Assembly (NCBI GenBank): GCA_023954475.1
Contig: JAMLHW010000010.1
Location: 1 to 64,000, forward strand
Origin: Anaerolineae bacterium
GTDB taxonomy: Bacteria; Chloroflexota; Anaerolineae; Promineifilales; Promineifilaceae
DNA: 64,000 nucleotides
Reading direction: 5' to 3'
Part shown: piece by piece, positions 1-64,000 of the stretch
How positions within the stretch are numbered: position 1 is the stretch's first letter
Layout: every line of letters begins with the position of its first letter
Program-made: the position numbers and the translations under genes
Notes under the pieces: generated by a model
Seen by the model: only the letters and a program-made list of their open reading frames with translations
Database searches by the model: none
Told to the model about the DNA's origin: nothing

Positions 1-1943
1 TATGTCGCCTCTACCCCGCTGACATCCTGCGCATCGGCCGTAAAAATGTAGTACGATTGATCGACGGATTCGATTGGTCCGACAACTGTCACAAAATCAC
101 CTAACTCCATCCGTGTGTCGGCATTCGGTACCAATAATTCGCCGTCACGACGCACCGCCATCACAAAAACACCGGAAGGCAGACGCAGTTCGCGCAAGCG
201 CTTGCCGGTAATCGACGGATTACGCACGACAACTTCGTGTACTTCTTTGGCGTCATCAGTACGCGTCATCAATTCGTAGGCACCCGGACTGCGCGTCAGC
301 AGCACCAGCAATGCGGCATAATCGACAGCCGGGTTGGTCGGGGTAACGCCTAACTGCTGGAATCGGCCGAATTCACGCGGATCAGTCACATGCGCCACAA
401 TATGCCTGGCACCGTATGTCGTCTTGATAAACCGACAAATCTGATAATTGACATCACTCTCACCGGGAGTCACCACCATACGCGTAGCGCGTTCCAGAAT
501 TGCTTTTGTGTGCACATCCGGGCGATCGGCATAACCGGCCACAATCGCCAGCCCCAACTCCTGCGCCTGCGCAATATGCTCCGGATTGGGATCGATCAAC
601 AGCACCGGCTCGTGATGACGCTGCAACTGCTGCGCCACTTCCAGCCCCATTTTGTTCGCACCAATGACCAGAATCGGCGGCTCTTCGGCCATTTCCGGTT
701 TGGGCATCATATAGTTAAACACCAACGGCCCGACCGTCGCCATGATCATCGCCAGCAAAATAATGTCGGCATTGACCGGCTCGGTCAAAATACCCAATTC
801 AACACCGATGGCAGCTTCCGCCACGATCAGTGACAAACGCGCCGTCAACAACATGCCGCCGGCAAACGTATCGTGCCATGAAAACTTGAGGCGCAACAAC
901 AAACCGGGAATGATCTTCACCGCCAGCGACCCCAGAATCAGCGCCGGAACCAGTAGCAGGGCATCGGGCGAATCGATCAACGCCTGCAAGTCAAAACGCA
1001 CACCGATCATGATAAAAAAGATCGGAATGAAGAAACCGAAGCCAATCGATTCGATCTGATGGATGGTCGCCTTATCTTCCGTACCGGCAACAAGCGAGAC
1101 CAATACGCCTGCCAGAAACGTACCGAGTACAATTTCTGCGCCCAGAAATTCAGACAGCACCACAAAAATGAGGAAGATAAACAGGGCAAATCGCAATTTG
1201 ACCTGCGACGATGTCGTGTTGATACGCGTCACCAGTTGGCGTACCCATTCCTGGCCATAAATGCGCCGCACAATCCAATAAACGACGGCAAAACCGACCA
1301 GAATCAAGCCCACCAGACCAACTTCAAAGCCAAATCCACCGAGATCGATGACGGCGACGACAACGGTCAAAATGAGTAATGTGCCAAAGTCAGCGACTGT
1401 CGCAGCGACGAGAAGGGTTTGCCCCAATTGCGTGCTGCCGTAACCGCTTTCTTTCAACACGGCCACGATCAAGCCCAGTGAAGAGGGCGCAAAGATCAGG
1501 ACGAGGAACAGCCAGCTATTGCCTTGGAGCAGGGTGGTCTGGGCCAAGCCAAAGGAAATGGCCACGCCGATCAACAGGGTCAAACCGAACATTACAATTC
1601 CCATTGGCACGGGGCTGGCAAGATATTCACTCCAGTTGGCTGTTTTTTGGGGACGGGAACTGCGCAAATTGGAAAAATCGATCTCGGTTCCCGCGAGGAA
1701 AAAGAGGATGCCAAATCCGAATTCGGACAAAATGATCAGGATGCGGTCATCACGCAGTTCAGGATAGAATTGGCCCAACACGATGCCGAGCAGGATTTCG
1801 CCGACTACAACCGGGATAGCAATCCAGCGATTGATGCGTGCCACGATAAACGGCACGATGAACGCCAGACCGATCACGATGAGCAGGGGGACGAACGATT
1901 CCCCTTCTTCAGCCACGGGGGCGAGTAGCAATATGTGTTCCAT
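1..1943 (-). CDS. Kef/CPA2-type monovalent cation:proton antiporter with TrkA domains (3' end cut by window)
   Basis: The reading frame is open from an ATG at 1943 to the window edge (647 complete codons, no stop), so the C-terminus is missing. The first ~390 residues are a chain of hydrophobic segments typical of the CPA2 antiporter family, including a membrane stretch with FLAGTEID and a later LGTFLAGVL segment. Around residue 412 a Rossmann TrkA-N domain begins (VIGANKMGLEVA), followed by a TrkA-C domain ending in a GDFVTVVGP-like strand. Such proteins exchange K+ or Na+ for H+ across the inner membrane, with the TrkA part sensing nucleotides. The start is backed by a strong GAGGAGGT ribosome site. 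Ion specificity cannot be read from the sequence. Confidence 0.9.
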   Translation of the reverse strand, partial: MEHILLLAPVAEEGESFVPLLIVIGLAFIVPFIVARINRWIAIPVVVGEILLGIVLGQFYPELRDDRILIILSEFGFGILFFLAGTEIDFSNLRSSRPQKTANWSEYLASPVPMGIVMFGLTLLIGVAISFGLAQTTLLQGNSWLFLVLIFAPSSLGLIVAVLKESGYGSTQLGQTLLVAATVADFGTLLILTVVVAVIDLGGFGFEVGLVGLILVGFAVVYWIVRRIYGQEWVRQLVTRINTTSSQVKLRFALFIFLIFVVLSEFLGAEIVLGTFLAGVLVSLVAGTEDKATIHQIESIGFGFFIPIFFIMIGVRFDLQALIDSPDALLLVPALILGSLAVKIIPGLLLRLKFSWHDTFAGGMLLTARLSLIVAEAAIGVELGILTEPVNADIILLAMIMATVGPLVFNYMMPKPEMAEEPPILVIGANKMGLEVAQQLQRHHEPVLLIDPNPEHIAQAQELGLAIVAGYADRPDVHTKAILERATRMVVTPGESDVNYQICRFIKTTYGARHIVAHVTDPREFGRFQQLGVTPTNPAVDYAALLVLLTRSPGAYELMTRTDDAKEVHEVVVRNPSITGKRLRELRLPSGVFVMAVRRDGELLVPNADTRMELGDFVTVVGPIESVDQSYYIFTADAQDVSGVEAT

Positions 1944-2316
1944 CCAGTGCGTACCTCCTCAAGGTCCGATTTTCACAGCAGCATCTATTTGCCCACATCG
2001 TTGCTGCCGTTTAGCTGTGTAAATCAGGCAGATTGATGTGCAAATGGGCAAAATGTCATAAGGCAATGTGGATACAATGAGCAGGAATTATACGCTGAAC
2101 GCGATCGGTTTTGAAAATGGGGTCAGATCGGTGGGGGAATTCGGCCGAATTTCTCCCCTGCTGCAGGCAAAATGGAAGAGGCACGGCACTGCGTTGAGCA
2201 ACTTGTAATCAGGGCATTTCATGCATCGCGGCTCTTGGTCGACACCTAACACAGACGGCGTAGTGCGCCTGACATGACGCAGAAAGTGGCGCTGCGCCAG
2301 CAAGGGCAAAGAAAAA

Positions 2317-2364
2317 GCCCCCCACTTCCGCGAGAGACTTTCGGAGAGCAGAAAGCCGGGGCGT
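2317..2364 (-). terminator. Probable rho-independent terminator after the small barrel protein
   Basis: On the minus strand a GCCCC-starting arm near 2360 faces a GGGGGGC arm near 2320, followed directly by TTTTTCTTT. The stem is imperfect in the middle (a smaller CTTTC/GAAAG hairpin sits inside). It lies 27-74 bp beyond the stop codon at 2391 and would end that transcript. The rest of 1944-2390 shows no convincing gene; one copy of the TTCGGCCGAA palindrome lies at about 2143. Confidence 0.5.
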
Positions 2365-2390
2365 CTGCTCTGTGTACAGGCGTAAGTCAG

Positions 2391-2702: not shown

Positions 2703-3107
2703 TTTCTGTGTACCTCCATGTGGTGAGTGCTGACGACCCTCTATGATCGTCAGATGGTTGCGGCGCCGCGTTAGCGTCGCAGAGACGCCGGGATAAATGC
2801 CGCCGCATGCAACGTATGGACCGGGCATCGGCCGATTTATAGGCTGAAATCCTGTGGGTGCGGTGGTGCTGTGACGGGGAATCCTACTGGTTACCAGCGG
2901 CCAACCCGCAGCCTACCTGATAGCATAGCACCTGAGACACGTGGTTGTCACGTGTCATTTGTCATACAAAAGACAATGGGAAGCGCGCAAGTGGCTTGTT
3001 CATCTACAAGCGTTGCCCAAATCGGCCGAAATGAGCAATTCGTCAGCTTCAACGCTTTTAGATTAAAGCACCTGGAATCTGCTTGCCCCTACACCGTAAT
3101 TTGACGG
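2703..3107. other. Intergenic stretch without a gene
   Basis: No open frame here has coding character. It holds the upstream region of the small barrel gene, two copies of the TCGGCCGA core (about 2828 and 3013) and the inverted repeat listed separately. No clear terminator for the upstream PEP-synthase-like gene was found. Confidence 0.5.
2936..2956. promoter_or_regulatory. Perfect 8-bp inverted repeat GACACGTG-N5-CACGTGTC
   Basis: GACACGTG at 2936-2943 and CACGTGTC at 2949-2956 form a perfect dyad with a 5-bp spacer, about 235 bp upstream of the small barrel gene. The size and symmetry suit an operator for a dimeric regulator; an RNA hairpin from the upstream gene's 3' region is the alternative. 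No T-run follows on either strand, so it is not an ordinary terminator. Confidence 0.35.
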
Positions 3108-5798
3108 CTATTCTTCCGTCACAACCACAATCCGTCCTGACATACCATCCACGCGCACACGTTGGCCGGTTTGCAAGCGCTGTGTCGCTTGATCGACACC
3201 GACCACTGCCGGAATGCCGTATTCCCGCGCCACGACGGAGCCGTGCGTCATCAGGCCGCCGACTTCAGTAATCAGACCAGCGGCGGTGAGAAAGAGCGGC
3301 GTCCACGCCGGATCGGTGCCGGGGCAGACGAGAATATCACCCGGCTGGAGGTGTGCGTCGGTTGGATCGAACACGACGCGTACCGTGCCTTCAACGACGC
3401 CGGGCGAAACAGGTGTACCGATGATCTGTTCAGGATCGTTGGGGCCGGTTTCGGCCGAAATACGCACCCCTTCATAAAACGCCTGCCCATCGCTCAACAG
3501 AATCCGTGGAATCTGCTTGCGCTGCGCTTCACGCGCAAGCAACTGCCGCCGTGCGGCGACAATGGCCTGCCAATCAGTCGTGCTTTTGCCACCGGCGAGC
3601 GTCTTTAATTCGGCCATCGTCAGGAAAAAGATGTCTTCGGCCGAATCGAGTACGCCGTCGGCCGTTAACTGCGCACCACTGACCAGCAATGAATGCCGCA
3701 CCAAGCCCAGCAGATTGACAATGGTGAATTTAGGACTTTCGCGCAAACCGGTTAGCGCACGAATACGGCGCACAGCAAAGCGGATCGCGCGGGCTTTGAT
3801 GAAGCCGCCCGGTGATCGCCGCACCATTTTCTCCAGCTTGCCGGCAGCATCCTCGGCGGCTTGTTCACCGCGTGCAAAAACGGCGTCCGGTGCTTGCGCG
3901 GGATCGGCAATGTTCAAATAGCTTTGCACAGTGCGGATCACCTGGGTCGGCTCTTCACGCCAGCGACGTCGGCCGAGATCGATTTCTGCCAGCCCGCGCA
4001 TACCATAGCGGGCCATGAACGCAGTGAGCGCTGTCTGAGCCGTGGGCGGCAGTGAACCGGCACGGTATTCGGCCGAAATTTGCGTCGCATCCAACTCAGC
4101 AAACAACATCCGTGCCGCGTCATCTTCACGAATCGCCTGTGCCGTGCGCCACAAGACCAGATCCATTTCTGTTGTCACATTATGCGGCAACCCACGCGTC
4201 AACAACAGCACCGTTTCACGCCCATCCGGCAAGTCATGCACGAGTCGGGTGAGCAAATTGAGCATCGCCATACCCGCGCCGACCGCCGGAACAAAACGCG
4301 GCAGCAATGCGGGAAATGCATTTTGAAAAACTGATTCGGCAAGCCGGACGCGGTCAGCCAGCGTGTCGGCATGGCGGAACCAGAGTGTGTAATGTGCGAC
4401 AAGATCGTCAAAGCGGAGTTGCAACTGTTCGCGAGTGGCGTCGGGATGACGCAGGGCATGTTGCAGGCGCACAATCATGGGCAGCAAGCCGAAGAGCAGG
4501 TGACGGATGGTGCGCAATCGCGGCAGGTTGCGCTGCACGGGAAAACGATTGCCGTCGTACAGTGTGCGCAACGCTTCGGCCGATGCCGGTTCGATCAGGG
4601 CCAGTGCGTTGGTGATGATTTTTCGGCCGATTTGAGTCAGCAGCGGCGGCGTCAGATCGATCCACAGCCGTTCGCCGGCGTGCCACACCAGGCGTTGCTT
4701 TTCCGGCGCAACCCGATAGTCAAAAATAGCTGCCATACCGGCGAAAATACCGCGAATCGCTTCGCGCCCCAGCGGTGTCACCGGGTCGAGCATTCCCTGC
4801 ACCGCGCCAAACGAGAAAAAGATGCGCAGCTTGTCATCGCGCACACTGGCATTTTCAGGACAGGGGAACAGTGATGTGATCGGTCTGGATTGCAGCAGCG
4901 CCAAGCCGCTTTCCGGCGTCCAACCCCATTCGATATCCTGTGGAAAATCGAACAGCGCTGCAACTTGCCTCCCCAAAACAACCAAATCATCAACGACTTC
5001 GTCGGATACAGCCGGGTTTTCAGCTATCGGCCGATTGGTGGTTATGATGCCGCCGCCATCTTTGCCGTGAATGACAGTCGCTTTGGCGCCCAGACTGCGC
5101 TGCACAATGGCCCCGGTTGCGCTGTCCACGACGTAATGATCTGGTTCGACCTGGCCGGAGACGAGCGCTTCACCGAGGCCCAGAGTGGCATCGATGACCA
5201 TCTGGTCGCGGCGTCCATTGAGCGGATTGGCGGTGAACAAGACACCGCTGGCAGCACTGGGAACCATATTCTGCACCACCACAGCGAGTGCCACGACGCT
5301 GTGGTCAATGCCATTGCGAGCGCGGTAACCAATGGCGCGTGCCGTCCACAGGCTGCTCCAGCAGTTGACGACCGCTGCGAGCAATGCCTGTTCGCCGATG
5401 ACGTTGAGGAAGGTGTCCTGCTGTCCGGCAAAGGACATGTCGGGCAAATCTTCGGCGGTGGCGGAGGAGCGCACGGCGACCGGCTGCAACGGATCGGGAT
5501 ACGCTTCGAGAATGGCGTCGATCAGGGTGGGGGGAATGGTTTCGGCCGAAAACAGCCCGCGTATCTGCTGCGAAACTTGCTGCAATGCTGCCGGATTGCG
5601 TGTGTCAGCGGCAGCGACCCGGTCCATAATCTCGTCAGCCAGATCAGTTGCAGCGATATAGAGTTGATAGGCGTAAGTGGTCAGCAGAAAACCGGCGGGA
5701 ACGGGCAAGCCGGCCCGTACCAGTCGGGCAAGATTGGCTCCTTTACCCCCGACGAGGTTGAGTGTCGCATCCGATGCGTTGAGCGGCAGAACAAACAT
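3108..5798 (-). CDS. PEP synthase / rifampin-phosphotransferase-like enzyme
   Basis: The 896-residue protein begins with a PPDK/PEP-synthase ATP-grasp domain (GGKGANLARL near residue 18, VRSSATAEDLPDMSFAGQQ near 110, a GLGEALVSGQV motif near 210) and ends with the swivelling PEP-utilising domain, whose phospho-histidine would be His852 in GGLMTHGSVVARE. The middle ~450 residues are not like the TIM barrel of true PEP synthases; this layout (ATP domain, helical middle, histidine domain) and the length are closest to the rifampin phosphotransferase group. It could phosphorylate a small molecule with ATP, or act as a pyruvate/water dikinase. No ribosome site precedes the ATG, but a TATGAT box sits 6 bp upstream, suggesting a leaderless mRNA. 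Confidence 0.85.
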   Translation of the reverse strand: MFVLPLNASDATLNLVGGKGANLARLVRAGLPVPAGFLLTTYAYQLYIAATDLADEIMDRVAAADTRNPAALQQVSQQIRGLFSAETIPPTLIDAILEAYPDPLQPVAVRSSATAEDLPDMSFAGQQDTFLNVIGEQALLAAVVNCWSSLWTARAIGYRARNGIDHSVVALAVVVQNMVPSAASGVLFTANPLNGRRDQMVIDATLGLGEALVSGQVEPDHYVVDSATGAIVQRSLGAKATVIHGKDGGGIITTNRPIAENPAVSDEVVDDLVVLGRQVAALFDFPQDIEWGWTPESGLALLQSRPITSLFPCPENASVRDDKLRIFFSFGAVQGMLDPVTPLGREAIRGIFAGMAAIFDYRVAPEKQRLVWHAGERLWIDLTPPLLTQIGRKIITNALALIEPASAEALRTLYDGNRFPVQRNLPRLRTIRHLLFGLLPMIVRLQHALRHPDATREQLQLRFDDLVAHYTLWFRHADTLADRVRLAESVFQNAFPALLPRFVPAVGAGMAMLNLLTRLVHDLPDGRETVLLLTRGLPHNVTTEMDLVLWRTAQAIREDDAARMLFAELDATQISAEYRAGSLPPTAQTALTAFMARYGMRGLAEIDLGRRRWREEPTQVIRTVQSYLNIADPAQAPDAVFARGEQAAEDAAGKLEKMVRRSPGGFIKARAIRFAVRRIRALTGLRESPKFTIVNLLGLVRHSLLVSGAQLTADGVLDSAEDIFFLTMAELKTLAGGKSTTDWQAIVAARRQLLAREAQRKQIPRILLSDGQAFYEGVRISAETGPNDPEQIIGTPVSPGVVEGTVRVVFDPTDAHLQPGDILVCPGTDPAWTPLFLTAAGLITEVGGLMTHGSVVAREYGIPAVVGVDQATQRLQTGQRVRVDGMSGRIVVVTEE

Positions 5799-10871: not shown

Positions 10872-11426
10872 TAACTATCTCTTTTGCATCAGAACCTGAC
10901 TGGCAGCAGAAAGAGTAAAAACGTTTCTTACTATGCTGCTTGAGAATGACTTGGACAAACTGCATTATGAGCGAAAATGACTATGATGTCAATTTCTTGT
11001 GCTGGAGATGCGTTCAGTCTGTGACGAAGATACGTTACTTTCAATTCATCAACAAAGAAAGGGAGGAAACGCTGTCATGATTCTACTGGAAACGTTCTGC
11101 ATTCAGGTTGATAGGTCATTGTAACCAAATCGATCCAAAACCAACTTTATCTCATCTGCCGTTGGCATATTGTGCCCGGTTCCCGATTCCTGCACTTTGG
11201 GTGCACTAGTAGCGTTGGCCACTGGCGTTCTTGCGCCAGGGGTGACAGTAATATAGGAGGTATGAAACCCTTCTTCAGCAAGGCTTTGGAGGACAACACA
11301 GCCCAAGAGATCATCGCCTATTTAGCCAAGAACATCACGATTCGGTGGCCTTGAAAGCAATACATGGCGGACATCGGCCGAAACCACCACATAATCATTA
11401 CCCTGAGTTGCTGTCATTGACGGCGA
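10872..11426. other. Intergenic stretch, no convincing gene
   Basis: The stretch holds the upstream region of the TPR gene. Its only longer frame is a 67-codon minus-strand frame (11103-11306) without a recognisable family or good ribosome site. A plus-strand AGGAGGT at about 11255 abuts an ATG with no spacer and leads into only 30 codons. One palindrome copy lies near 11375. Confidence 0.45.
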
Positions 11427-13305: not shown

Positions 13306-13767
13306 AAGCCGACGCCCAGTTCGACGATCAATCGCCGGAGTCCATGTAGATGGTTTCGCGTTGAACGAGACCATCCTGCACGTCATAAAGGGTCACGCCC
13401 GGAACTGAATGGTTTTACCTGTGGGTTCGAGTCGCTGCTCAAAAACGGGCGGTCCAAGTGGTCCCGTGTGTGTGCCAGTGAAGACCCACTCGGTCACGAC
13501 GACATCGTCTGCGGCGATAGTGCGCGTGACTTCGTAGTCGGAATCATCGAAACCCGCGAACCAGATAGGAAAAAACGCGGCGCTCTCTTCGGCCGAACTC
13601 GGTGGCGTCTCAAAGGCATCGCCGTACACCCAATCGATGATGAACCCCTCGGCGTGTAAGGCCTTCAACGTCTTTGTGTCTTGGGCCGACATAGCTGCCA
13701 CCACTTGGGACACGACCTCAAATGCTGAGGGGTTGTCCTGACGAGGTTTGCGGTTCATGAGCTTCAT
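13302..13767 (-). pseudogene. SnoaL/NTF2-like protein, frame broken by two 1-bp deletions
   Basis: The first ~124 residues read in one frame (VVSQVVAAMSAQDTKTLKALHAEGF, DYEVTRTIAADDVVVTEWVFTGTHTG), a SnoaL-like cone fold used by polyketide cyclases, isomerases and many proteins of unknown role. After GKTIQFR the frame is lost at CCC 13398-13400; one added G gives GVTLYDVQDGLVQRETIY, and a second missing base at AA 13330-13331 is needed to reach IVELGVGL and a stop at 13302. The repaired gene is 155 codons plus stop (466+2 bp) and its stop overlaps the MFS start. It follows the MDR gene by 18 bp. Confidence 0.75.
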
Positions 13768-18356: not shown

Positions 18357-18480
18357 TTGTACGTAATATCCGACTAGTATGGTTGCGCCTCACGCCTAAA
18401 CTTCAATTCGGCCGAACGCTGCGTGTTGACAGTGGCTTACGTGTAACTGTCACATGGCGACTTCAGCACTGTACGTTTCA

Positions 18481-26595: not shown

Positions 26596-26963
26596 GCATT
26601 ACATAGAGATGGCATTAACAAAAAACCACATGCAAGGATGAGGTGATTTCAACCTCTGATGAATAGAATGTAGCCGTATTTAGTAATGAAGTGCCACTTT
26701 TGTCCAAAGCGTCACTCAAAATGCGGCGAGAATGTTCGAAAACTACTGTTTAGGTGCTGAGGTTTGTCTGTACAGAAAAGCTCTGTTGCCATATATGACT
26801 AAAGATACTGTTTGAAAATCTGTGCTGGCTTCGCGATCGTGCCAATATCGGCCGAAATTTCTACAAAAGTGACATTCGACACTACCGCACGACGCACCTG
26901 AAACATTATACTGAATCAGGCGTGCTTCACGATACATAGCAGCCCGACGCCTTGATTACAATT

Positions 26964-27204: not shown

Positions 27205-27297
27205 GCCGTAGCCGTTCGGCCGATGCTGACACGCTGTTAAAATCGGCCGAAAACCGCTCTACGTGAACCGAATAGTTCATCGTTCATGCGCCTCAAT

Positions 27298-38501: not shown

Positions 38502-38681
38502 TTATTTTCTCCAATTTATAGGTATTATTCGGCTAATTGAGCCATTATTGTCTGGTAGCGGTCAGCATATCCAGGCGCGTCCGCAGTATGGGGCGTCTCC
38601 GCATATCATTTGGCACACACGTCTGTTCACAGTTCGATGGGCATCGGCCGAAAACCCGGATCACAGACAGCCTCGGCAACA

Positions 38682-56335: not shown

Positions 56336-58986
56336 GGCGTCATCTCCAAAAGGGTGATGCCTGTGGGATTGATCAGCAGCAATTGGGCCGGGGCGATGCG
56401 CCCACACACAGCAGTTGCCGCTACGGTCGGGTCATAGGTAGCGCGTCGCGCAGCAAGGACGCTGTTCAGTGAGCCGGTGGGCTGTAGATCGGTGTGCAGC
56501 GCCTCGAGATCGACGGCTATCACGCCGGGAATCGTGTGGATGAGGGCCAGAATTTCGGCCGAAGTGACCACTTGCCCAAACGCCCGTTTCTCAAACGAAA
56601 ATGCCTGTAACAACAGCGCTGTAATCGCCGCCTCCACATCATTGCGCAGATACGCCTCGTCGATCAACACCTTGGCAGTAACCCTAAACGAACGCGCTTC
56701 GTGGGAGCCGTAGCACACCGTGCGCAATGGATCGCGCGCTTCAGCTACCGCCGTCTTCAGGTCATCGAGCGTACCCGCCGGTACAGGTTGTCCTGTCGGG
56801 TCAGACAATGTGATGTGGACGAGTTCGCGCATGCCGTCCCACAGGGCGACCGCCTGTGCCTTGCCGATACCGGCAAAGCCGCGTGCAAAATCCTCATAGT
56901 CGCGCAGCGAGACGATGCGATCCAATGTGCGTACGGTCAAAGGCGCATTGTCGCGTGCGCCATCCAACGTTTCCGGGTCTTCTGCACCATCGGCCGAAAC
57001 GGGATTGGTCACATCACGCACGCCAAACGGGCGTTTCTTGAGCAATGTCAGCGTACCCGCGCCCACTTCACCGTCCAGTCCAATGCCGCTGCGGTAAGTG
57101 GCACGTACATTTTCGGTTCCGGACGGCAAACGTGCGCCCATTTTGCCGTCGCCAAAGATGACGGTCGCGTTGGCGTCGTCGTCAATACGCACACTGTACA
57201 CTTTGTCGGTAGGCGCGTGGGCATACAACGACGGGCGCTGCTCCCACGCCACGCCATTGACGCGCACGGTCAACTCACTGCGACTGCCAGCGGGTGTTGC
57301 TGCGGACACATGGGTTAGCGGTCGTTTCTTGAGCGTAAAGCGCTGGTGTGGCTGTGCGCCGTTGCCTGCTCCGAGGACTTCATCGGCGACCGTTTCGCCG
57401 TGCGTGGCATGGACCACATTGCCGTAAATCGTCGTCGTGCTGCGCTGATAGCTGTGGCCCAATGCGTTGACCAGAGTCAGGCGCGTGCGTGCGCCAAGCT
57501 GCTGCGCTTCCTTGAGTTCGGCCACTTCGCTTACGGCAGTAGTTGCGCCGACCGGGATGCCGCTGACGATGAGATGACTGCCGGTCGGCAGCGGCTCAAC
57601 GACCGTTTCGAGGTCGATCACGGGGCCGATGATCGCTGTGGTCAGGTCTTGCGCGGCAAGAGTCAGCTTTTCCGGGGCACCGTATACTTTCGTCTGGCGC
57701 ACCAGTGTGCTGAAATCGTCGCGATCAGGCCCATCGAGCGATAAACGGGTCACTTCGGCCGAAATCAGGAACTGCGACCGCGATGTCTCTTCCACGTTGG
57801 TCACCCAATACAATTCGCTGAGCGCACCCGCCTGAAAATATATCCAGCTATTGGGTGCGATCTTGTCGTAGCGGCTGTCGAGATCGACTTTGCAGCCTGC
57901 TGAACCGACTGCTTTTGCTTTGGCGGCGGGTGTGGTGCCGGGTTTGTTGATGATCTGGACATCGATGGCTTTGTCTTTGATTGCGAGCGCTTCAAATGCA
58001 ATTTGATCGATACCCTTAATCGGCTCGATGTTTAATTTCACTTTTCCGAAGCTTCCGGTAGGCACACAAATTTCAAAATTGGGCCATTCCGTCAACGAAC
58101 TGTTGCCGCCGGGATAATTGTTTTGAATATCGGCCGATAAGCCGTTCCAGTCCGCCGCATTATGACCGAAAATACCGGCCCGCTGCCGCAGCGCATACAC
58201 GTTGGGCGTCGTCGACAGCGTATCCTTACTGCCTACCGTCACCGTGACCAGCGTGCGGTTTTTTGTCGGTTCAGCAGTCGTGCTGAGAACACGGCGAACG
58301 TCCCATTTATCGCCGCTCTTGCCGCCTTCCTTGCTCGGATCAACGAGCAGCAACCGGTCGCCGGTGCGCAGATTGGCATCAACGCCGACGACGATGATCG
58401 TCGTTGTGCCGACGGTGATGAGCTGCGGCAGTGTTACCTGCGGCTGCAACTTGTTCCAGGCAACGTGCGCTGTGAAATCGGCCGTCGTCTCAAATGTCTG
58501 TGGCAGTTCATCCTGTTTCTGCGGCAGGCTTTGCACCTGCGTGGCGGCGGGAATGGGTGCAGAGGAGGGCGTGGAGCCGCTGTCGTCCAGTGTGAAGGCG
58601 AGGTAAGTTTCGGCCGAAACGCCCGGCTTCAACTCGTACCCAATCGCCCGCGCCAATGTCAACACGGACAGCCGCTCCGTCGCTGTGCGCAAAAAGCCTT
58701 CGTTGGCGATGCGCTCCTGATAAAACGTCAACACATCACCGACAACGGCCCATGCGTCGAGCACGCCCATGGCAAAATCGTCGGCGGCTCGCGTCGTCAG
58801 GTCGCGCAGCGGGCGACGACCGTCCACTTCAACGCGACCGAGTTGTGCTGTCATGCGCCGCATAAAGCCATCATATGTGCTGATGCGGTAGTCGAGCGCC
58901 GTTTGACCCGGTGGATTCGATAATTGTGGTGCGGCAGGCGCATCGGCGCAGCAGTCACACGGTTTGGTTTCGGCCGAATTGCTCAT
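56332..58986 (-). CDS. Putative baseplate assembly protein (J-type), second copy
   Basis: The 884-residue protein belongs to the large 'putative baseplate assembly protein' type of contractile-tail clusters. It has a Cys-rich start (KPCDCCADAP), a helical DYRISTYDGFMRRMTAQLG segment, DFAMGVLDAWAVVGDVLTFYQERIANEGFLRTATE, a long beta-rich middle and a gpJ-like C-terminus (RIVSLRDYEDFARGFAGIGKAQAVALWDGMRELVHIT, EAAITALLLQAFSFEKRAFGQVVTSAEILALIHTIPGVIAVDLEAL). J proteins form the wedge ring that triggers sheath contraction. It overlaps both neighbours by 4 bp (ATGA). Confidence 0.86.
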   Translation of the reverse strand: MSNSAETKPCDCCADAPAAPQLSNPPGQTALDYRISTYDGFMRRMTAQLGRVEVDGRRPLRDLTTRAADDFAMGVLDAWAVVGDVLTFYQERIANEGFLRTATERLSVLTLARAIGYELKPGVSAETYLAFTLDDSGSTPSSAPIPAATQVQSLPQKQDELPQTFETTADFTAHVAWNKLQPQVTLPQLITVGTTTIIVVGVDANLRTGDRLLLVDPSKEGGKSGDKWDVRRVLSTTAEPTKNRTLVTVTVGSKDTLSTTPNVYALRQRAGIFGHNAADWNGLSADIQNNYPGGNSSLTEWPNFEICVPTGSFGKVKLNIEPIKGIDQIAFEALAIKDKAIDVQIINKPGTTPAAKAKAVGSAGCKVDLDSRYDKIAPNSWIYFQAGALSELYWVTNVEETSRSQFLISAEVTRLSLDGPDRDDFSTLVRQTKVYGAPEKLTLAAQDLTTAIIGPVIDLETVVEPLPTGSHLIVSGIPVGATTAVSEVAELKEAQQLGARTRLTLVNALGHSYQRSTTTIYGNVVHATHGETVADEVLGAGNGAQPHQRFTLKKRPLTHVSAATPAGSRSELTVRVNGVAWEQRPSLYAHAPTDKVYSVRIDDDANATVIFGDGKMGARLPSGTENVRATYRSGIGLDGEVGAGTLTLLKKRPFGVRDVTNPVSADGAEDPETLDGARDNAPLTVRTLDRIVSLRDYEDFARGFAGIGKAQAVALWDGMRELVHITLSDPTGQPVPAGTLDDLKTAVAEARDPLRTVCYGSHEARSFRVTAKVLIDEAYLRNDVEAAITALLLQAFSFEKRAFGQVVTSAEILALIHTIPGVIAVDLEALHTDLQPTGSLNSVLAARRATYDPTVAATAVCGRIAPAQLLLINPTGITLLEMTP

Positions 58987-61604
58987 ATGCCACCTTCCAT
59001 GAAAAAGGTAACTTTGCCGTTTTCCGGCAAGCTCGGATCATTATCGAGGCGTGCTATTTCCAGTCTGCCCATCTTGATTTTGCCGTCGGCCACCTCGTTA
59101 TTAGGCGGTTGTCCCCAACGCTGAAAGCGATGCTGCCGGTCGAGCGGCTGGGCGGGATTGGGCAAGATATCGACCCACTGCACGCCGGTGACGTTCATCG
59201 CCGTTGCGATCACATCGCTGAGATAGACCGGCTGTCCAAACGTCCAGTTGTCCGGGTGGAAAAAGCCGCGTTGTCCGTCGGATAAAGTGCGGCTGCTGAA
59301 CACGCGCAGCAACGCCTGCTGCACATTGCCGGGGAAATAACCGGGCTGCACACACACGGTCATGCGTATATCCAGGGCGACAAAGCGCGGCGCATCGACT
59401 TCGACATCGTGCCCGGCCAGACGGAATGGCTCGATGTGATCGCGGCAATCCGCTTCGAAGACAGCATCGACCGGCAGACCGGATTGGCGATCTACAGTGA
59501 CAAACATCGTGTGCCAGCTTCCAGTCCAGCGACGGGTTGCCGCAGCGCGTTGTACGGCCGGATGGCGTTCTGTGACAGCGGCGTAATCGGCCGAAGTGAC
59601 AGCCCGCTCCTGGCGGCGAAAAGCCTGCGGCGCATACAGTTTGACCTCATCGAGCGATTCCGGCGCCGCACCACCGCGAGCAGGCAACGGATTGCGCACG
59701 GCGCTGATACCCGCCACATCGGTGATGATGTGATGCAGCGTATCTGCGCCAATGTTGCCGGCGGTGCCGTTGCCAATGCGGTAGAGTGCACCCGGATCGC
59801 TTACACTGGTATCGTCATCGGTAAACGCATTGGACGACGGCTCCACGCCAAAAACGCCGTCGCCGAAACGCAAATACGCATAGCCGTCGTTCTCCAGTTC
59901 GGCAACGAAATGGGGTGCGAAACGGTCGCTTTCGAGTAAATCACGGCGCGGCGTCCACGTCTGGCTGTCGCCTTCCAATTCGACGACCGGCAGCGCGGCT
60001 TGGGGCGTCTGTTGCAGCAGGCGTGCAGCGGGAAGCGTGGCGTCGATGTAATTCTCCGGCTCCGGATCACCGGGAAGCGGTTCGGTGAGAATGGTCGCCT
60101 GGGGCCGGTCGGGATCGAGCGGCGCGGCGCGGGTAACGCCGGTGCGGGACAATTTCGGCCGAAAAACGCGATGAGCCAGCCCGTGACGCAATGGTTCGCG
60201 CACCAGCGTGCGCCCGTGGTCGGCTAACGCCACATTACCGCGCACAACGGTCATCTGCTCGATCAAGGTGTCGTTTTGATCACGCTTACTGACACAGAGC
60301 GAGAACGGCAGCGCATCTTCATCACGCCAGGTGACGGTGACGACAGGAACGCCGACGACGGGATCATCGACTGGTTCGACAGCGGTGAGGCGTACCGCAT
60401 GGCGATGTGCGGGATCGGCATCGGCAGCAGCGCCCGTTTCCGGGCTAATTACTTCTTCGAAGATGATTACATCTCCTTCTGACAGGGCGAGGACGAGCGC
60501 CGCATCGGTACTGCTGAGCAATGTCGCGCTGGTCGCGCCGGCGGGGAGGCAGCACGCTTCATCGCCCCATGTGTGCAGATGGATGGTGTTGTGGGCCGGG
60601 CGCATGGTGGCTGATGTGCGCAATTCAAACACAATCGGCCGAAATGTCGCCAGCGCATCATCGAGATCACTTTCAGCCAAAACAGTCGGCACACCGGGCA
60701 TCCGCGTCAACAGCCGCACCGGCGCTGTGGTCAACGCCGTCGGCGCAGGCAAGTCCACCAACGCGTCCACATCAAACGCAACCCAGGTGCGTGCATTGCA
60801 ACCGTCGTGCAGCGGATAAGCCAGCAAGCGGGCGTGACGACGCACAGAACTGCGCCGCCGTGCCGTCTCCAGATACGCTTCGGTGGCGACGCCATCCTGC
60901 CAGTAGCTGAGATAGTCACCGACATATGCCAGCAAATCGACCAGCGCAATGTTGACATCGGGCAAGTGGCGTTCCTGCCAATCCGGATTGGTGATCGCCA
61001 TCCGGTCGAGGATCAACTGGCGGAACGAGTTGAAATCTTTGGCGAGATAGTCGATTGCCGGCGTTTCTTCCGGTTCGGGTGGGCAATCATCTGTCGGTGC
61101 ACAATCAAAGTCATCCGGGCATTCGACCTTGAACGAGAAGTCGATGCGGTTGAGAATGGGGTCGAAGCCGGGGAATGGGCTGGCGTCGGTCGGTGAGGCG
61201 ACGATGCGCAGGGTGTAGGTGTCAAAATCGCCGCTGCTGTCGGTGCGGACGAGCAGGACGTGATCGGGGTCGGTCAGACTGGCAAAAAAGGCGGCTTCAT
61301 CGGCCGAAATAGTTCCCGGCGGCAAACTTCCCGTCGCATCAGCGGCAACAACCCAATCGACACCGACCGGTGTAATACGTACTCCGCCGTCAATGTGGAT
61401 GTTATCGGCGGTCAATCCGGCCGGAACAGGCCGCAACAGCCGCACGAGCAGCGTGCGCTGCCGCATGTCGTCATTGGGCGGGATGCCATCCGGCGCTTCA
61501 CTGTCGAGCACCTCCAGAAAATCAATCCCGTTGACGACGATTGCCGCGTTGTTTCGAATAATTTGGGCGCGGCGCTGATTGTCGCAAACATAGCGGTTTG
61601 CCAT
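58983..61604 (-). CDS. Putative baseplate assembly protein (J-type), first copy
   Basis: The 873-residue protein starts MANRYVCDNQRRAQIIRNNA with a strand-rich N-domain, then PAIDYLAKDFNSFRQLILDRMA, VDLLAYVGDYLSYWQDGVATEAYLETARRRSSVRRHARLL, a core J motif, and a C-terminus with FRRQERAVTSADYAAVTERHPAVQRAAATRRW and VYLSDVIATAMNVTGVQWVDI. It is related to, but clearly different from, the copy at 56332, as in other extracellular-injection clusters with two J proteins. The second ATG (61604) has GAGG at proper spacing. It starts 2 bp after the gp25 gene ends. Confidence 0.86.
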   Translation of the reverse strand: MANRYVCDNQRRAQIIRNNAAIVVNGIDFLEVLDSEAPDGIPPNDDMRQRTLLVRLLRPVPAGLTADNIHIDGGVRITPVGVDWVVAADATGSLPPGTISADEAAFFASLTDPDHVLLVRTDSSGDFDTYTLRIVASPTDASPFPGFDPILNRIDFSFKVECPDDFDCAPTDDCPPEPEETPAIDYLAKDFNSFRQLILDRMAITNPDWQERHLPDVNIALVDLLAYVGDYLSYWQDGVATEAYLETARRRSSVRRHARLLAYPLHDGCNARTWVAFDVDALVDLPAPTALTTAPVRLLTRMPGVPTVLAESDLDDALATFRPIVFELRTSATMRPAHNTIHLHTWGDEACCLPAGATSATLLSSTDAALVLALSEGDVIIFEEVISPETGAAADADPAHRHAVRLTAVEPVDDPVVGVPVVTVTWRDEDALPFSLCVSKRDQNDTLIEQMTVVRGNVALADHGRTLVREPLRHGLAHRVFRPKLSRTGVTRAAPLDPDRPQATILTEPLPGDPEPENYIDATLPAARLLQQTPQAALPVVELEGDSQTWTPRRDLLESDRFAPHFVAELENDGYAYLRFGDGVFGVEPSSNAFTDDDTSVSDPGALYRIGNGTAGNIGADTLHHIITDVAGISAVRNPLPARGGAAPESLDEVKLYAPQAFRRQERAVTSADYAAVTERHPAVQRAAATRRWTGSWHTMFVTVDRQSGLPVDAVFEADCRDHIEPFRLAGHDVEVDAPRFVALDIRMTVCVQPGYFPGNVQQALLRVFSSRTLSDGQRGFFHPDNWTFGQPVYLSDVIATAMNVTGVQWVDILPNPAQPLDRQHRFQRWGQPPNNEVADGKIKMGRLEIARLDNDPSLPENGKVTFFMEGGI

Positions 61605-61606: not shown

Positions 61607-61966
61607 TCATACCTCGCGTGAGAATTGCGCCACTTGCCGCTGCTGGCTGCGCTGCACGATGTATTGCACGCTGATCGACAGCGTGGCATCGTGGCTTTCG
61701 ACACGCACTGCTTCCGGCTTGATGATGTCGCCGAGGTGTTGTTGCAACGCGCTTTGAATCATGAATTCGGTCGCCGTCGCCAGTTCGGGACTGTTGGGCG
61801 CGAAGATAAGCTGCATGACGCCGGTGCCGAAAGTGGGCCGATTGACGCGTTCGCCGGGCGCGGTAAACAGTAATTGTTCAATCATCTGATGAATGTGCGG
61901 ATCGGATTCGGCCGAAGCGACCCGTCCACTGCCGTCGATGTGAAAAGGATAGGCGATGTTTGTCAT
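61607..61966 (-). CDS. GPW/gp25-family baseplate protein
   Basis: The 119-residue protein reads MTNIAYPFHIDGSGRVASAE, DPHIHQMIEQLLFTAPGERV, RPTFGTGVMQLIFAPNSPEL, the full pattern of T4 gp25/P2 gpW: an N-terminal strand, the conserved helix ending in LLFTAPGERV and the FGTG turn. In T4 this protein staples sheath to baseplate. Upstream in-frame codons to a GTG at 61996 lie inside a hairpin and are excluded. The ribosome site is weak. It follows the PAAR gene after a 57-bp gap with a strong hairpin. Confidence 0.9.
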   Translation of the reverse strand: MTNIAYPFHIDGSGRVASAESDPHIHQMIEQLLFTAPGERVNRPTFGTGVMQLIFAPNSPELATATEFMIQSALQQHLGDIIKPEAVRVESHDATLSISVQYIVQRSQQRQVAQFSREV

Positions 61967-62344: not shown

Positions 62345-62359
62345 GTTCTTTCCTAGACA

Positions 62360-62391: not shown

Positions 62392-62392
62392 A

Positions 62393-62893
62393 TTATGTAA
62401 TCGTCAACGCACCGGCGTTGATGTCAGTGACCGGGCCGGTCATCGAGATGATTGCGCCCTGACCGTTACTGATAATGATGCCGGTTTCGTTGATCGTAAT
62501 CGTCGCGCCGGACGCGCTCTTGAGCAAAATGCCGCCGACGCCGGGCATATCGCTGATGGCGATGGCGTTTTGACCGTTGGTTTGCAGGACGATGCTAGGC
62601 GAAGGAGGTAAACCGGCCAGCGCCAATGCGGGCGTCTCGCCCGGCCCCCAAAACCCACCGGCATAAATCGGATAATCGGGATCACCTGCTTCAAATTCAA
62701 CCCAGACATGGCTGCCAATGGTCGGCACAGCGTAGATGCCCGTCTGGATGCCGGCGAGCGGCACGCACGGCATCGCCCAACTAAGGCGACCGTCACCGAG
62801 AACTGCGGGCACACTGACCTGAATTCGGCCGATTTGCATGGGATCGATATTATTGACCACCGAGCCGCGATATTTGCCGAAAAATTGTTTCAT
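62393..62893 (-). CDS. Phage baseplate assembly protein V-like spike protein
   Basis: The 166-residue protein has the gpV/Gp5 OB-fold (FFGKYRGSVVNNIDPMQIGRIQVSVPAV, WAMPCVPLAGIQTGIYAVPTIGSHVWVEFEAGDPDYPIYAGGFWG) followed by short beta-prism repeats (SDMPGVGGILLKSASGATITINETGIIISNGQGAIISMTG). It would form the trimeric spike under the tube, capped by the PAAR protein. There is no lysozyme domain. Its ATG overlaps the stop of the gpD-like gene (ATGA), so both are translated in step. Confidence 0.9.
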   Translation of the reverse strand: MKQFFGKYRGSVVNNIDPMQIGRIQVSVPAVLGDGRLSWAMPCVPLAGIQTGIYAVPTIGSHVWVEFEAGDPDYPIYAGGFWGPGETPALALAGLPPSPSIVLQTNGQNAIAISDMPGVGGILLKSASGATITINETGIIISNGQGAIISMTGPVTDINAGALTIT

Positions 62894-64000
62894 GGAATCA
62901 CCACCGGACTGATTGAACCGACACCTTCCCGCTCCAACGAGAATTGCTGCTGATAACTACCGCGCTCCAGCGTATGGGTTACTTGCTGCACGTAATAAAA
63001 ACCGTCGTAACTGTAGCCAACGCCGCGCACACCTACGAGACCACGTGGCTGCAAAATCGACTCGTAGCGCAGTGCGTCGAGTTGGCCGCTAGCCCTGATC
63101 ACCGTGTCCTGAGCGCGGTCGGTCTCTGCCTGGGCCTGCGCGTATGCCTGCGCTGTGTTGAGACCGGAGTAACGCACCGCTTTTGTGCGCGTATGCGATT
63201 GGGTCAACCACGCCGGCTGGGTGACGAGCGGAATGCGGGTGCTGGCAAATGTGCGCACGGGAATGGCGACATTCAGGTTGCGATCCTGCACCGTACCGCT
63301 GACAAATTGCGATTGCATGCCGTCGTATTGAAAGCTTATGTTGTTCAGATTGCTATCAGACCCCATACCGGAAGTCAATGCCCGCTGCGGCACACCGACG
63401 CGAATCGGTGGCCCCCAATACGCTTTGTTGACGAGCGGCACCGGCCCCGGTTCGACGTAAAACGTGTAGGCGTAACGCGCAGCCATCTCGTTGAGATAAG
63501 CCAGATCGGTGCCTTGCTGCACCGGTGTGCGCTCGATGGGCAGGGGAATATCGATGGACGGCGGCGGAATGACGGTCGGAATCAAGCCGTATTGAGCATA
63601 GGTCGCAATCAGCTTGAGCGCAATGACAACTTCGGGTTGGGCAGGATGTTCGGCCGATTTTTCCTCCAAATCCATCATGACGCTGACATCTTCGCCGGTG
63701 ACAGTCAACCGGGTACCGCCCGGCTGCTCACTGGGCTGCAACTGCTGGTTGGTGATGACGCCGTCAAACAGGACGCGAGGCAGGGCGTTGAAGGTAACGA
63801 CCATGATGACACGGCTGAACGGGCGCAGCAACGGCGTCGCCAACTCGCGATAATCGAGAATATCGGTCTGGTCACGCCCGGCGCGAAACACCATCTGGAA
63901 ACCGGAACGACCCCGGTCGCTGTGGCGCACTTCGACGCGTTCCAGCGCATCGAGCAGGAACGACGGCGCGGGCAGCGGCGCTGTCGGGCCGATAAGCAGT
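62890..64000 (-). CDS. Phage late-control gpD-like hub protein (5' end outside window)
   Basis: The frame is open to the right edge; codons before the internal Met at 63930 read PAPSFLLDALERVEVRHSDRG, so the true start is outside. The visible ~370 residues match the gpD/VgrG-N hub: RVLFDGVITNQQLQPSEQPGGTRLTVTGEDVSVMMDLEE, QQGTDLAYLNEMAARYAYTFYVEPG and GVRGVGYSYDGFYYVQQVTHTLERGSYQQQFSL. It forms the ring between tube and spike. In contractile-injection clusters the gene follows sheath, tube and LysM-protein genes, so these should lie beyond 64000. Confidence 0.88.
   Translation of the reverse strand, partial: LLIGPTAPLPAPSFLLDALERVEVRHSDRGRSGFQMVFRAGRDQTDILDYRELATPLLRPFSRVIMVVTFNALPRVLFDGVITNQQLQPSEQPGGTRLTVTGEDVSVMMDLEEKSAEHPAQPEVVIALKLIATYAQYGLIPTVIPPPSIDIPLPIERTPVQQGTDLAYLNEMAARYAYTFYVEPGPVPLVNKAYWGPPIRVGVPQRALTSGMGSDSNLNNISFQYDGMQSQFVSGTVQDRNLNVAIPVRTFASTRIPLVTQPAWLTQSHTRTKAVRYSGLNTAQAYAQAQAETDRAQDTVIRASGQLDALRYESILQPRGLVGVRGVGYSYDGFYYVQQVTHTLERGSYQQQFSLEREGVGSISPVVIP

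What the first reader, a model, noticed from the sequence alone, without database searches (positions are those of the whole stretch)
1..64000. Genome-wide HIP1-like palindrome TTCGGCCGAA
The 8-mer TCGGCCGA occurs more than 80 times by eye and most copies extend to TCGGCCGAA or the full 10-mer (for example near 2143, 3015, 4071, 6788, 12381, 17344, 30128, 32505, 41665, 50016, 58609, 61908). About one copy of an 8-mer is expected by chance in 64 kb. Copies lie in all reading frames (giving SAE, FGR and FRPK) and in gaps, so protein coding does not explain them. Cyanobacterial HIP1 behaves like this. It could be a methylation, repair, uptake or chromosome-organisation signal. I know of no description for this group.
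Basis: partly seen in the sequence, partly recalled or inferred. Interest (0 to 1): 0.8.

Follow-up and report, generated by a model that had tools for sequence, protein, structure and literature searches.

The report
Phage-shared palindrome marking Chloroflexota genomes
One eight-letter DNA palindrome is repeated thousands of times across this bacterium's genome; many relatives, and phages presumed to infect them, carry versions with the same six-letter core, so it looks like a cell-wide DNA recognition mark whose reader is unknown.

Summary
TCGGCCGA occurs 87 times in the window (expected: 1.7 from shuffles, 4.2 from an order-3 Markov model) and 7,668 times in the 5.12 Mb genome (reversed-word control 125). 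The organism belongs to the Chloroflexota.

The family uses dialects of one palindrome with core CGGCCG and a switching outer pair: ACGGCCGT in 21 of 34 relatives, TCGGCCGA here and in one relative, GCGGCCGC in one, core only in three; eight fit none. None of 24 genomes outside the family has it in quantity.

Sites are maintained. Between sister species the eight bases diverge two to four times less than their surroundings, and most sites keep their positions (47/50, 25/29, 7/10; controls 62-70, 57 and 21%). Density is equal inside and outside predicted genes.

Methyltransferases do not track it: 10 of 21 ACGGCCGT genomes lack the m5C family PF00145. Tailed phages carry the dialects (73 ACGGCCGT in 22.8 kb, no other outer palindrome), which speaks against an uptake sequence.

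Best reading: a HIP1-like, apparently methylation-independent recognition site for a host DNA-binding factor acting on all DNA in the cell. The factor was not found.

The parts
363..370 (.). TCGGCCGA site
2141..2148 (.). TCGGCCGA site
2828..2835 (.). TCGGCCGA site
3022..3029 (.). TCGGCCGA site
3451..3458 (.). TCGGCCGA site
3637..3644 (.). TCGGCCGA site
3969..3976 (.). TCGGCCGA site
4069..4076 (.). TCGGCCGA site
4576..4583 (.). TCGGCCGA site
4623..4630 (.). TCGGCCGA site
5027..5034 (.). TCGGCCGA site
5542..5549 (.). TCGGCCGA site
6790..6797 (.). TCGGCCGA site
7402..7409 (.). TCGGCCGA site
7984..7991 (.). TCGGCCGA site
8050..8057 (.). TCGGCCGA site
8176..8183 (.). TCGGCCGA site
11374..11381 (.). 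TCGGCCGA site
12382..12389 (.). TCGGCCGA site
13589..13596 (.). TCGGCCGA site
16576..16583 (.). TCGGCCGA site
17345..17352 (.). TCGGCCGA site
17668..17675 (.). TCGGCCGA site
17961..17968 (.). TCGGCCGA site
18408..18415 (.). TCGGCCGA site
19313..19320 (.). TCGGCCGA site
20539..20546 (.). TCGGCCGA site
20680..20687 (.). TCGGCCGA site
21229..21236 (.). TCGGCCGA site
21812..21819 (.). TCGGCCGA site
24251..24258 (.). TCGGCCGA site
26848..26855 (.). TCGGCCGA site
27216..27223 (.). TCGGCCGA site
27243..27250 (.). TCGGCCGA site
28209..28216 (.). TCGGCCGA site
28894..28901 (.). TCGGCCGA site
28924..28931 (.). TCGGCCGA site
30129..30136 (.). TCGGCCGA site
30843..30850 (.). TCGGCCGA site
30913..30920 (.). 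TCGGCCGA site
31414..31421 (.). TCGGCCGA site
32504..32511 (.). TCGGCCGA site
32627..32634 (.). TCGGCCGA site
32883..32890 (.). TCGGCCGA site
33272..33279 (.). TCGGCCGA site
33389..33396 (.). TCGGCCGA site
33811..33818 (.). TCGGCCGA site
33896..33903 (.). TCGGCCGA site
34080..34087 (.). TCGGCCGA site
34634..34641 (.). TCGGCCGA site
36236..36243 (.). TCGGCCGA site
38011..38018 (.). TCGGCCGA site
38644..38651 (.). TCGGCCGA site
41664..41671 (.). TCGGCCGA site
41734..41741 (.). TCGGCCGA site
42372..42379 (.). TCGGCCGA site
44582..44589 (.). TCGGCCGA site
44762..44769 (.). TCGGCCGA site
45515..45522 (.). TCGGCCGA site
45850..45857 (.). TCGGCCGA site
46298..46305 (.). TCGGCCGA site
46823..46830 (.). 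TCGGCCGA site
46935..46942 (.). TCGGCCGA site
48727..48734 (.). TCGGCCGA site
49542..49549 (.). TCGGCCGA site
50015..50022 (.). TCGGCCGA site
50887..50894 (.). TCGGCCGA site
52092..52099 (.). TCGGCCGA site
52534..52541 (.). TCGGCCGA site
52672..52679 (.). TCGGCCGA site
53642..53649 (.). TCGGCCGA site
53922..53929 (.). TCGGCCGA site
55254..55261 (.). TCGGCCGA site
55415..55422 (.). TCGGCCGA site
56555..56562 (.). TCGGCCGA site
56990..56997 (.). TCGGCCGA site
57755..57762 (.). TCGGCCGA site
58130..58137 (.). TCGGCCGA site
58610..58617 (.). TCGGCCGA site
58970..58977 (.). TCGGCCGA site
59587..59594 (.). TCGGCCGA site
60155..60162 (.). TCGGCCGA site
60635..60642 (.). TCGGCCGA site
61300..61307 (.). 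TCGGCCGA site
61908..61915 (.). TCGGCCGA site
62825..62832 (.). TCGGCCGA site
63650..63657 (.). TCGGCCGA site

Best explanation
TCGGCCGA is this lineage's dialect of a family-wide, highly iterated recognition palindrome (core CGGCCG; the outer base pair and weaker flanks differ between lineages). It is most likely the binding site of an inherited, sequence-specific host DNA-binding factor, probably a symmetric dimer, that acts on all DNA in the cell, phage DNA included. Having a site every few hundred to a thousand or so bases is favoured, so sites are gained and kept on chromosome and phage alike, and when the factor's reading of the outer pair shifts the genome is rewritten to the new dialect. 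Shown: abundance, dialects, maintenance at orthologous sites between close species, extended symmetric consensus, equal density in and out of predicted genes, presence in tailed phages, and bearers without PF00145 and with no or only marginal PF01555 matches. Inferred: that one protein reads the site, that it is a dimer, that the driver is selection or directed repair at the site, that site density is what is favoured, and which process it serves (DNA maintenance, repair direction or self-recognition). That the phages infect this family is inferred from the shared dialect.
For: Genome-wide count 7,668 against 125. Dialects: ACGGCCGT 2,887-13,708 copies in 21 of 34 family relatives, TCGGCCGA 7,668 in G000 and 9,414 in G031; these two alone among 52 family genomes, the next highest being 2,070; GCGGCCGC in G013, core without strong outer preference in G005, G016, G025; in 24 genomes outside the family only 0-451 and 0-287 copies. 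Positional conservation: 47/50 and 47/55 (92-93% identity), 25/29 and 25/28 (89.5%), 7/10 and 7/9 (76%), against 62-70%, 57% and 21% for control 8-mers (binomial p 2e-6 to 1e-3 for the four cases tested). Divergence inside against 6-30 bases away: 0.018/0.060, 0.033/0.105, 0.068/0.281, 0.146/0.271 in four pairs. Flank consensus beyond codon-phase expectation: GGNA|ACGGCCGT|TNCC in the A-type pool, WW|TCGGCCGA|WW here, C|GCGGCCGC|G in G013, little in core-only genomes, with little left-right covariation apart from the adjacent base, which fits a protein half-site consensus better than a hairpin. Coding 1.54/kb (694 in 451 kb), non-coding 1.50/kb (79 in 53 kb). Spacings up to 100 bases: 65 seen, 109 expected. 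Phages: L586 with portal, major head and tape-measure genes has 73 ACGGCCGT in 22.8 kb and none of the other three outer palindromes; L576 (portal, major head) 36 in 21.9 kb; L502 (terminase) 18 in 9.3 kb; L587, found by protein and not by motif, 9 in 6.4 kb.
Against: The factor was not found. Spacing repulsion is weaker in the pooled A-type sample (84 seen, 94 expected), absent in the five phage stretches tested, and two rarer control palindromes of ten in the own genome show an even lower ratio (TTGCAA, ACGCGT). Gaps up to 6.3 kb exist in the host, so a site is not needed everywhere. Over larger distances positions turn over: own against G031 0/1 and 0/2 in DNA alignments at 70% identity, G028-G009 1/1 and 1/5 at 74%; by translated alignment 2 of 9 own sites are TCGGCCGA in G031, and of 91 own sites aligned to A-type relatives 11 have the core and one is ACGGCCGT, which is hard to square with indispensable fixed sites. 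The dialect classes are not sharply separated: core-only G025 has 2,982 ACGGCCGT, as many as A-type G030 with 2,887. Phage densities come from loci mostly chosen by the motif. Methyltransferases outside PF00145 and PF01555 were not surveyed. A repair or mutation bias with no selected function fits most of the data.
Confidence: 0.5

Rival explanations
1. Methylation-linked HIP as proposed for cyanobacteria (Elhai 2015): an orphan methyltransferase methylates the core and a methylation-directed mismatch repair ratchet creates and preserves sites.
For: Same scale and look as HIP1 (around 500-2,500 per million nucleotides for most). The own genome has one m5C methyltransferase of PF00145, L009 1462-2748, and G031 has four PF00145 hits. 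A permuted Zn-ribbon methyltransferase is present in 22 of 24 genomes with an outer-pair dialect and in 4 of 11 family genomes without one.
Against: PF00145 is absent from 10 of 21 A-type genomes, among them one scored 100% complete, and from core-only G005. PF01555 is absent from G005 and marginal in G030 and G002. The one close relative of L009 among 58 relatives (79%) is in G024, whose dialect differs. The Zn-ribbon enzyme is missing from A-type G011 (95% complete) and G002 (78%), present in HIP-less G003 and G023 and in three of four same-order outgroups, and its middle region is not conserved among same-dialect genomes.
Confidence: 0.15
2. DNA uptake sequence: competence machinery prefers DNA with the palindrome, and biased import spreads it; the outer-pair variants are dialects as in Neisseriaceae.
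For: Copy numbers in the range of DUS dialects (up to 5,918 in 2.4 Mb) and the same pattern of constant core with variable outer bases. ComEC is present in 55 of 59 genomes searched, own included. Mild spacing repulsion, as noted for uptake sequences (passage).
Against: Tailed phages carry it at host-like or higher density, whereas a paper I saw only as a search listing (PMC7371117) uses DUS distribution to find integrative elements. ComEC was not found in the A-type genomes G034 (95% complete, 13,708 copies) and G029 (83%), and it is as common in HIP-less genomes and families. One-mismatch forms are over-represented in DUS genomes but not here (271 seen; 425 expected by an order-2 and 333 by an order-3 model, summed). 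Uptake sequences are not palindromes and are denser outside genes (passage).
Confidence: 0.12
3. Non-adaptive repair or mutation bias: a host repair or nicking enzyme with sequence preference converts near-matches into the palindrome on any DNA replicated in the cell, with no benefit from the sites.
For: Near-matches in the central GGCC are low in the own genome (O/E 0.24-0.62) and non-matching outer contexts are scarce (ACGGCCGT 4 of 19, GCGGCCGC 7 of 40, GCGGCCGT 5 of 55 expected). Coding and non-coding densities are equal. Phage DNA replicated in the cell would be affected too.
Against: Short spacings are avoided in the own genome. In A-type genomes and phages half-matching outer bases are enriched, not depleted (O/E 1.5-4.4 and 2.0-5.3). 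In the group of genomes without the palindrome some of the same central near-matches are also low (0.38-0.39), so part of the depletion is background.
Confidence: 0.15
4. Repeat-family or codon artefact: dispersed mobile repeats, or a word favoured by codon usage.
For: 62% of coding copies lie in one frame (431 of 694).
Against: Copies occur in all frames and between genes at equal density; sequence around copies departs from expectation only within about 4-8 bases; relatives with similar composition lack the word.
Confidence: 0.03

Closest known systems
HIP1 (GCGATCGC) and alternate HIPs of cyanobacteria (Elhai 2015, PMC4390886; abstract and three sections read, one of them in part)
   Same: An 8-base palindrome repeated about 1-2 times per kb across whole genomes; lineages with variant outer bases or other palindromes.
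   Different: Different phylum and core; one family shows a constant core with at least three outer pairs plus a core-only state. The paper reports a capable methyltransferase in every genome with a highly over-represented sequence; here PF00145 and PF01555 do not track it. The words phage, CGGCCG, Chloroflex and TCGGCCGA do not occur in its main text.
DNA uptake sequence dialects of Neisseriaceae (Frye 2013, PMC3630211; abstract and one section read)
   Same: Thousands of copies, constant core with lineage-specific outer bases called dialects.
   Different: DUS are not palindromic; one-mismatch forms are enriched in DUS genomes (PMC1939737, passages) and not in the own genome; here phages carry the motif.
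18-base palindromic repeat of Caldithrix abyssi (PMC5317091; passages read)
   Same: Genome-wide palindrome of unknown function.
   Different: 38 exact cores, 13 of them overlapping annotated coding regions, and strand-linked; here thousands, at equal density in and out of predicted genes.
Chi and similar sequence-encoded marks (recalled, not tested)
   Same: Sequence itself, not a modification, would label DNA as self.
   Different: Chi is not palindromic and is read by RecBCD; no nuclease is identified here.

Membership tests
HIP1 / highly iterated palindromes | Most over-represented 8-mer, palindromic, spread over the whole genome at about 0.5-2.5 per kb | tested here: met
   Rank tested in the window only; spread and density over the genome, 1.5 per kb; yardstick
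HIP1 / highly iterated palindromes | Sequence GCGATCGC or one with a GATC core | tested here: not met
   GCGATCGC 0 in the window, CGATCG 17 of 45 expected
HIP1 / highly iterated palindromes | A methyltransferase able to methylate the sequence in every genome that has it | tested here: not met
   PF00145 absent in 10 of 21 A-type genomes and in G005; PF01555 absent in G005, marginal in G030 and G002. Other methyltransferase families not surveyed; the own genome does have one m5C gene of unknown specificity
HIP1 / highly iterated palindromes | Methylation of the site in the cell | not testable with these tools
   No methylation data
DNA uptake sequences | Dialects with a constant core | tested here: met
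   DUS pattern
DNA uptake sequences | One-mismatch forms over-represented | tested here: inconclusive
   Own genome 271 seen, 333-425 expected; A-type genomes enriched at the outer base only
DNA uptake sequences | Competence gene comEC present in bearers | tested here: inconclusive
   55 of 59 genomes, but not found in bearers G034 and G029, and present in non-bearers
DNA uptake sequences | Preferential uptake of DNA with the motif | not testable with these tools
   Needs a transformation assay
Type II restriction site | Site avoided in the genome | tested here: not met
   Strongly over-represented in host and phage
REP-like intergenic repeats | Confined largely to intergenic DNA | tested here: not met
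   694 of 773 copies in predicted ORFs, equal density

The most novel reading that the evidence does not exclude
The palindrome is a sequence-encoded, modification-independent self mark: a host nuclease or DNA-handling system spares or services DNA that carries the local dialect at sufficient density, so host genomes are saturated with it, phages have evolved to match their host's dialect, and dialect switching is a host escape from phages or from foreign DNA.
Probability: 0.2. Interest if true: 0.93.

Novelty: new variant of a known kind. Interest (0 to 1): 0.8.

Why it matters
HIP1 was described in 1995 (reference seen) and its function is still argued over; it has been tied to methylation. 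A second system in another phylum with a fixed core, several outer-pair dialects, losses and a core-only state is a natural experiment: dialect, methyltransferase content, phage content and gene content can be compared across about 50 genomes of one family. Phages carrying the dialects mean that the process acts on, or is demanded of, other DNA in the cell too, which narrows the options for HIP function in general. The dialects may also give a simple sequence tag for assigning phages to hosts in an uncultured group.

Tried and rejected
m5C methyltransferase L009 as the HIP enzyme: not conserved in the family. The N4/N6 methyltransferase on contig C21 (L090 9942-10895, minus strand): its end overlaps the start of a small ORF (9461-9964, minus) that I judged by eye to be endonuclease-like, so probably a restriction-modification pair; it grouped with none of the 30 relatives' enzymes clustered. 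The permuted Zn-ribbon methyltransferase looked promising at first (present in all six bearers tested), but its distribution and the lack of conservation of its middle region do not fit. ComEC as a discriminating gene: nearly universal. Replication-terminus mapping and strand bias: not possible. A test of whether own sites replaced A-type sites in place: no sign of it, but divergence is too high to decide. No structure prediction was run.

Limits: relatives are mostly draft assemblies; dialects other than TCGGCCGA and ACGGCCGT were called from samples of 4-43 kb per relative, and G008, G010, G019, G027 and G033 from under 16 kb. Genomes with under 4 kb were dropped from the table, and two fetched stretches without readable bases were dropped from all counts. 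G030 is the weakest A-type call (2,887 copies in 6.6 Mb, 5 in a 22 kb sample). Gene calls are simple ORFs of at least 100 codons. In the site-conservation and divergence counts both directions of each pair are used, so shared sites count twice. The tree holds 27 of 30 sequences. The phage contigs have no recorded host in my calls, and prophage origin is not excluded. Papers: of PMC4390886 I saw outline, abstract, sections 7 and 12, part 1 of section 18 and one word search; of PMC5317091, PMC1939737, PMC13065082, PMC8093824, PMC9239245 and PMC4687349 passages; of PMC3630211 outline, abstract and one section; PMC7371117 only as a search listing. The NAR paper on HIP1 selection and periodicity that I recalled is not held, and nothing is taken from it.

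Full report
OBSERVATION. TCGGCCGA occurs 87 times in the window; dinucleotide shuffles give 1.7 on average and at most 5, an order-3 Markov model 4.2. The next most over-represented 8-mers of the window are words overlapping it. Genome-wide there are 7,668 copies in 5,120,153 bases, with 125 copies of the same word read backwards, and 3,215 copies of TTCGGCCGAA against 17.

DIALECTS. Sampling relatives showed that most of those sampled carry another palindrome with the same core, ACGGCCGT. Whole-genome counts of both words over 58 relatives divide the 34 others of the family into 21 with ACGGCCGT (2,887 to 13,708 copies, 0.4-2.1 per kb), one with TCGGCCGA (G031, 9,414), one with GCGGCCGC (G013, 42 of 47 CGGCCG sites in 30 kb), three with CGGCCG itself enriched 2.3-4.5 times and no strong outer preference (G005, G016, G025), and eight that fit none of these. 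The borders are not sharp: the core-only genomes have 1,189-2,982 ACGGCCGT and 771-1,326 TCGGCCGA. Of the eight, G003 and G023 (63-64% GC) have each word at 4-6 times its reversed control but no excess of the core in samples (O/E 0.9-1.2); G019 and G033 show a weak core excess (22 against 6.8 and 20 against 7.8 expected); G010 has a different palindrome, TGCCGGCA, 3,665 copies. The 24 genomes of the same order and class outside the family have 0-451 and 0-287 copies. Among 52 family genomes TCGGCCGA reaches more than 1 per kb only here and in G031; the next highest count is 2,070 in genus g6. In a tree of one shared protein these two are sisters (own sequence partial there). G016 and G031 share a genus but not a dialect.

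EXTENDED SITE. With codon phase controlled, flanks differ sharply from expectation: in A-type genomes A at -1 (0.50 against 0.20), G at -3 (0.49 against 0.28) and G at -4 (0.52 against 0.30); in the own genome C or G at -1 only 6% against 58%; in G013 C at -1 0.62 against 0.27. A control hexamer GCCGGC departs by 0.08 at most and core-only genomes by about 0.06. Left and right flanks vary nearly independently beyond the adjacent base (z 3.6 and 2.5 at the adjacent base, otherwise 2.2 or less), as expected of two half-sites and not of a hairpin.

WHERE THE SITES LIE. In 504 kb of the own genome 773 sites have the same density in predicted ORFs (1.54/kb) and outside (1.50/kb; p 0.91). Frame usage is uneven (431, 146, 117). 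Short spacings are avoided: 20 at up to 50 bases against 57, 65 at up to 100 against 109. Over 10-100 bases the observed/expected ratio 0.65 is lower than in all 36 control 6-mers of 400-1,200 copies (lowest 0.72), though of ten palindromic 6-mers of 150-1,500 copies two rarer ones are lower (0.51, 0.52). In the A-type pool the ratio is 0.89, and in five phage stretches there is no deficit. The longest gap, 6.3 kb at 45% GC, holds ORFs that I took by eye for a recent insertion; this was not tested.

MAINTENANCE. In sister-species alignments sites are intact in 47 of 50 and 47 of 55 (G021-G034), 25 of 29 and 25 of 28 (G001-G022), 7 of 10 and 7 of 9 (G017-G032, 76% identity) and 1 of 1 and 1 of 5 (G028-G009); control 8-mers with two CpG are intact in 62-70%, 57%, 21% and 17%; a fifth pair gave no alignment. 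Per-position divergence in the first two pairs is 0.012-0.037 inside the eight bases and 0.080 at 13-30 bases away; the position just outside is higher (0.166), as is -4 (0.110). Own against G031 shares none of 1 and 2 sites in DNA alignments and 2 of 9 in translated ones; own sites aligned to A-type relatives keep the core in 11 of 91, while 6.6% of control 8-mers are identical, so no clear excess. Sites therefore persist over species divergence but largely turn over across genera.

NEAR-MATCHES. In the own genome one-mismatch forms total 271, against 425 expected by an order-2 and 333 by an order-3 model (summed), and outer-pair variants of other dialects are scarce (ACGGCCGT 4 of 19, GCGGCCGC 7 of 40). 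In A-type genomes and phages a mismatch at the outer base is enriched 1.5-4.4 and 2.0-5.3 times while core mismatches are not, apart from one transition at 1.5-1.6 on few counts. The core is thus strict and the outer base graded, more so in A-type genomes.

METHYLTRANSFERASES. The own genome has a single PF00145 m5C gene. Of 59 genomes, own included, 22 have PF00145; 10 of 21 A-type genomes lack it (G001, G002, G004, G006, G009, G017, G018, G022, G029, G030), as does core-only G005. PF01555 is absent from G005 and weak in G030 and G002. A permuted Zn-ribbon methyltransferase is frequent (22 of 24 bearers of an outer-pair dialect, 0 of 3 core-only, 4 of 8 others of the family, 3 of 4 same-order outgroups at E below 1e-60) but is missing from A-type G011 and G002, and its middle region varies. 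Neither family explains the palindrome; enzymes of other families were not surveyed.

PHAGES. Scanning IMG/VR for two sites within 10-40 bases found phage contigs saturated with the motif. L586, on a 65.5 kb contig with portal, head morphogenesis, major head and tape-measure genes, has 73 ACGGCCGT in 22.8 kb and no TCGGCCGA, GCGGCCGC or CCGGCCGG; L576 (portal, major head) has 36 in 21.9 kb; L502 (terminase) 18 in 9.3 kb. L587, fetched through its tape-measure protein and not by motif, has 9 in 6.4 kb, while six terminase relatives of 41-45% identity (L580-L585, some probably the same phage) have 0-2. One contig with a phage-type primase/helicase, L437, carries 11 TCGGCCGA in 11.1 kb and none of the other three. 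A-type phage stretches examined carry 1.4-3.7 per kb, but they were chosen by the motif except L587 (1.4), which lies within the host range. A sequence that phages accumulate is not expected of an uptake signal or a restriction target; it fits something the host does to, or requires of, DNA in the cell. The hosts of these phages are inferred from the shared dialect only.

INTERPRETATION. The pattern works like HIP1 and in its dialects like DUS, but I do not file it under either: the methyltransferase rule of HIPs is not met for the two families tested, and phage carriage and near-match counts speak against DUS. The best-supported mechanism is a site-specific DNA-binding factor with a constant core reading and an evolvable outer reading; whether sites are kept by selection or by directed repair is open. 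I found no report of these words as genomic motifs (TCGGCCGA, nine papers seen as titles and opening lines only; ACGGCCGT, AACGGCCGTT and TTCGGCCGAA, one unrelated paper) nor of highly iterated palindromes in this phylum (none; by listing, the latter 10 of 126) in the open library searched.

Noticed in passing
G010 (family relative); loci L174-L176: A different highly iterated palindrome, TGCCGGCA, 3,665 copies in a 62%-complete draft, among the sampled stretches 15 against 0.5 expected.
   Followed up: partly
G000 contig C1 about 577.1-579.0 kb, minus strand (L280, L282, L307): The own copy of the permuted Zn-ribbon methyltransferase is split over two frames, the change of frame lying near a TTTCGGCCGA site; assembly error or real frameshift not resolved. 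G013's copy shows one in-frame TGA.
   Followed up: partly
L275, L280, L267: The permuted Zn-ribbon methyltransferase is followed by a NurA-domain gene in G031 (Pfam) and by an apparent NurA homologue in the own genome and G006 (by eye).
   Followed up: partly
L090 9461-10895 (own contig C21): An N4/N6 methyltransferase whose end overlaps the start of a small, by eye endonuclease-like ORF, probably a restriction-modification pair.
   Followed up: partly
L504 12027-13187: A HIP-dense phage contig encodes a full-length phosphoadenosine phosphosulfate reductase family protein (phrog_12882, 2e-126).
   Followed up: no
L437 3303-10497: Contig with the TCGGCCGA dialect has an amidoligase / glutamine amidotransferase cluster next to a phage-type primase/helicase.
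   Followed up: no
L470, L524 (IMGVR_UViG_3300033417_000002): HIP-dense element with integrase, ParA-like and FtsK-like genes, perhaps a phage-plasmid or integrative element; 49 ACGGCCGT in 13.2 kb of L470.
   Followed up: partly
G021 and G034, around L026 8284-8364: An about 80-base repeat, matching in both orientations, recurs on dozens of contigs of both genomes.
   Followed up: no
window 56332-58986: Putative baseplate assembly protein (TIGR02243, over its cut-off), suggesting a contractile injection system or tail-like cluster in this part of the window.
   Followed up: no
L179 (G018): GCCGGC 35 copies in 7.7 kb against 5 expected and several repeated 8-mers, apparently a local repeat or different composition; ACGGCCGT is not among the top palindromes there.
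   Followed up: no
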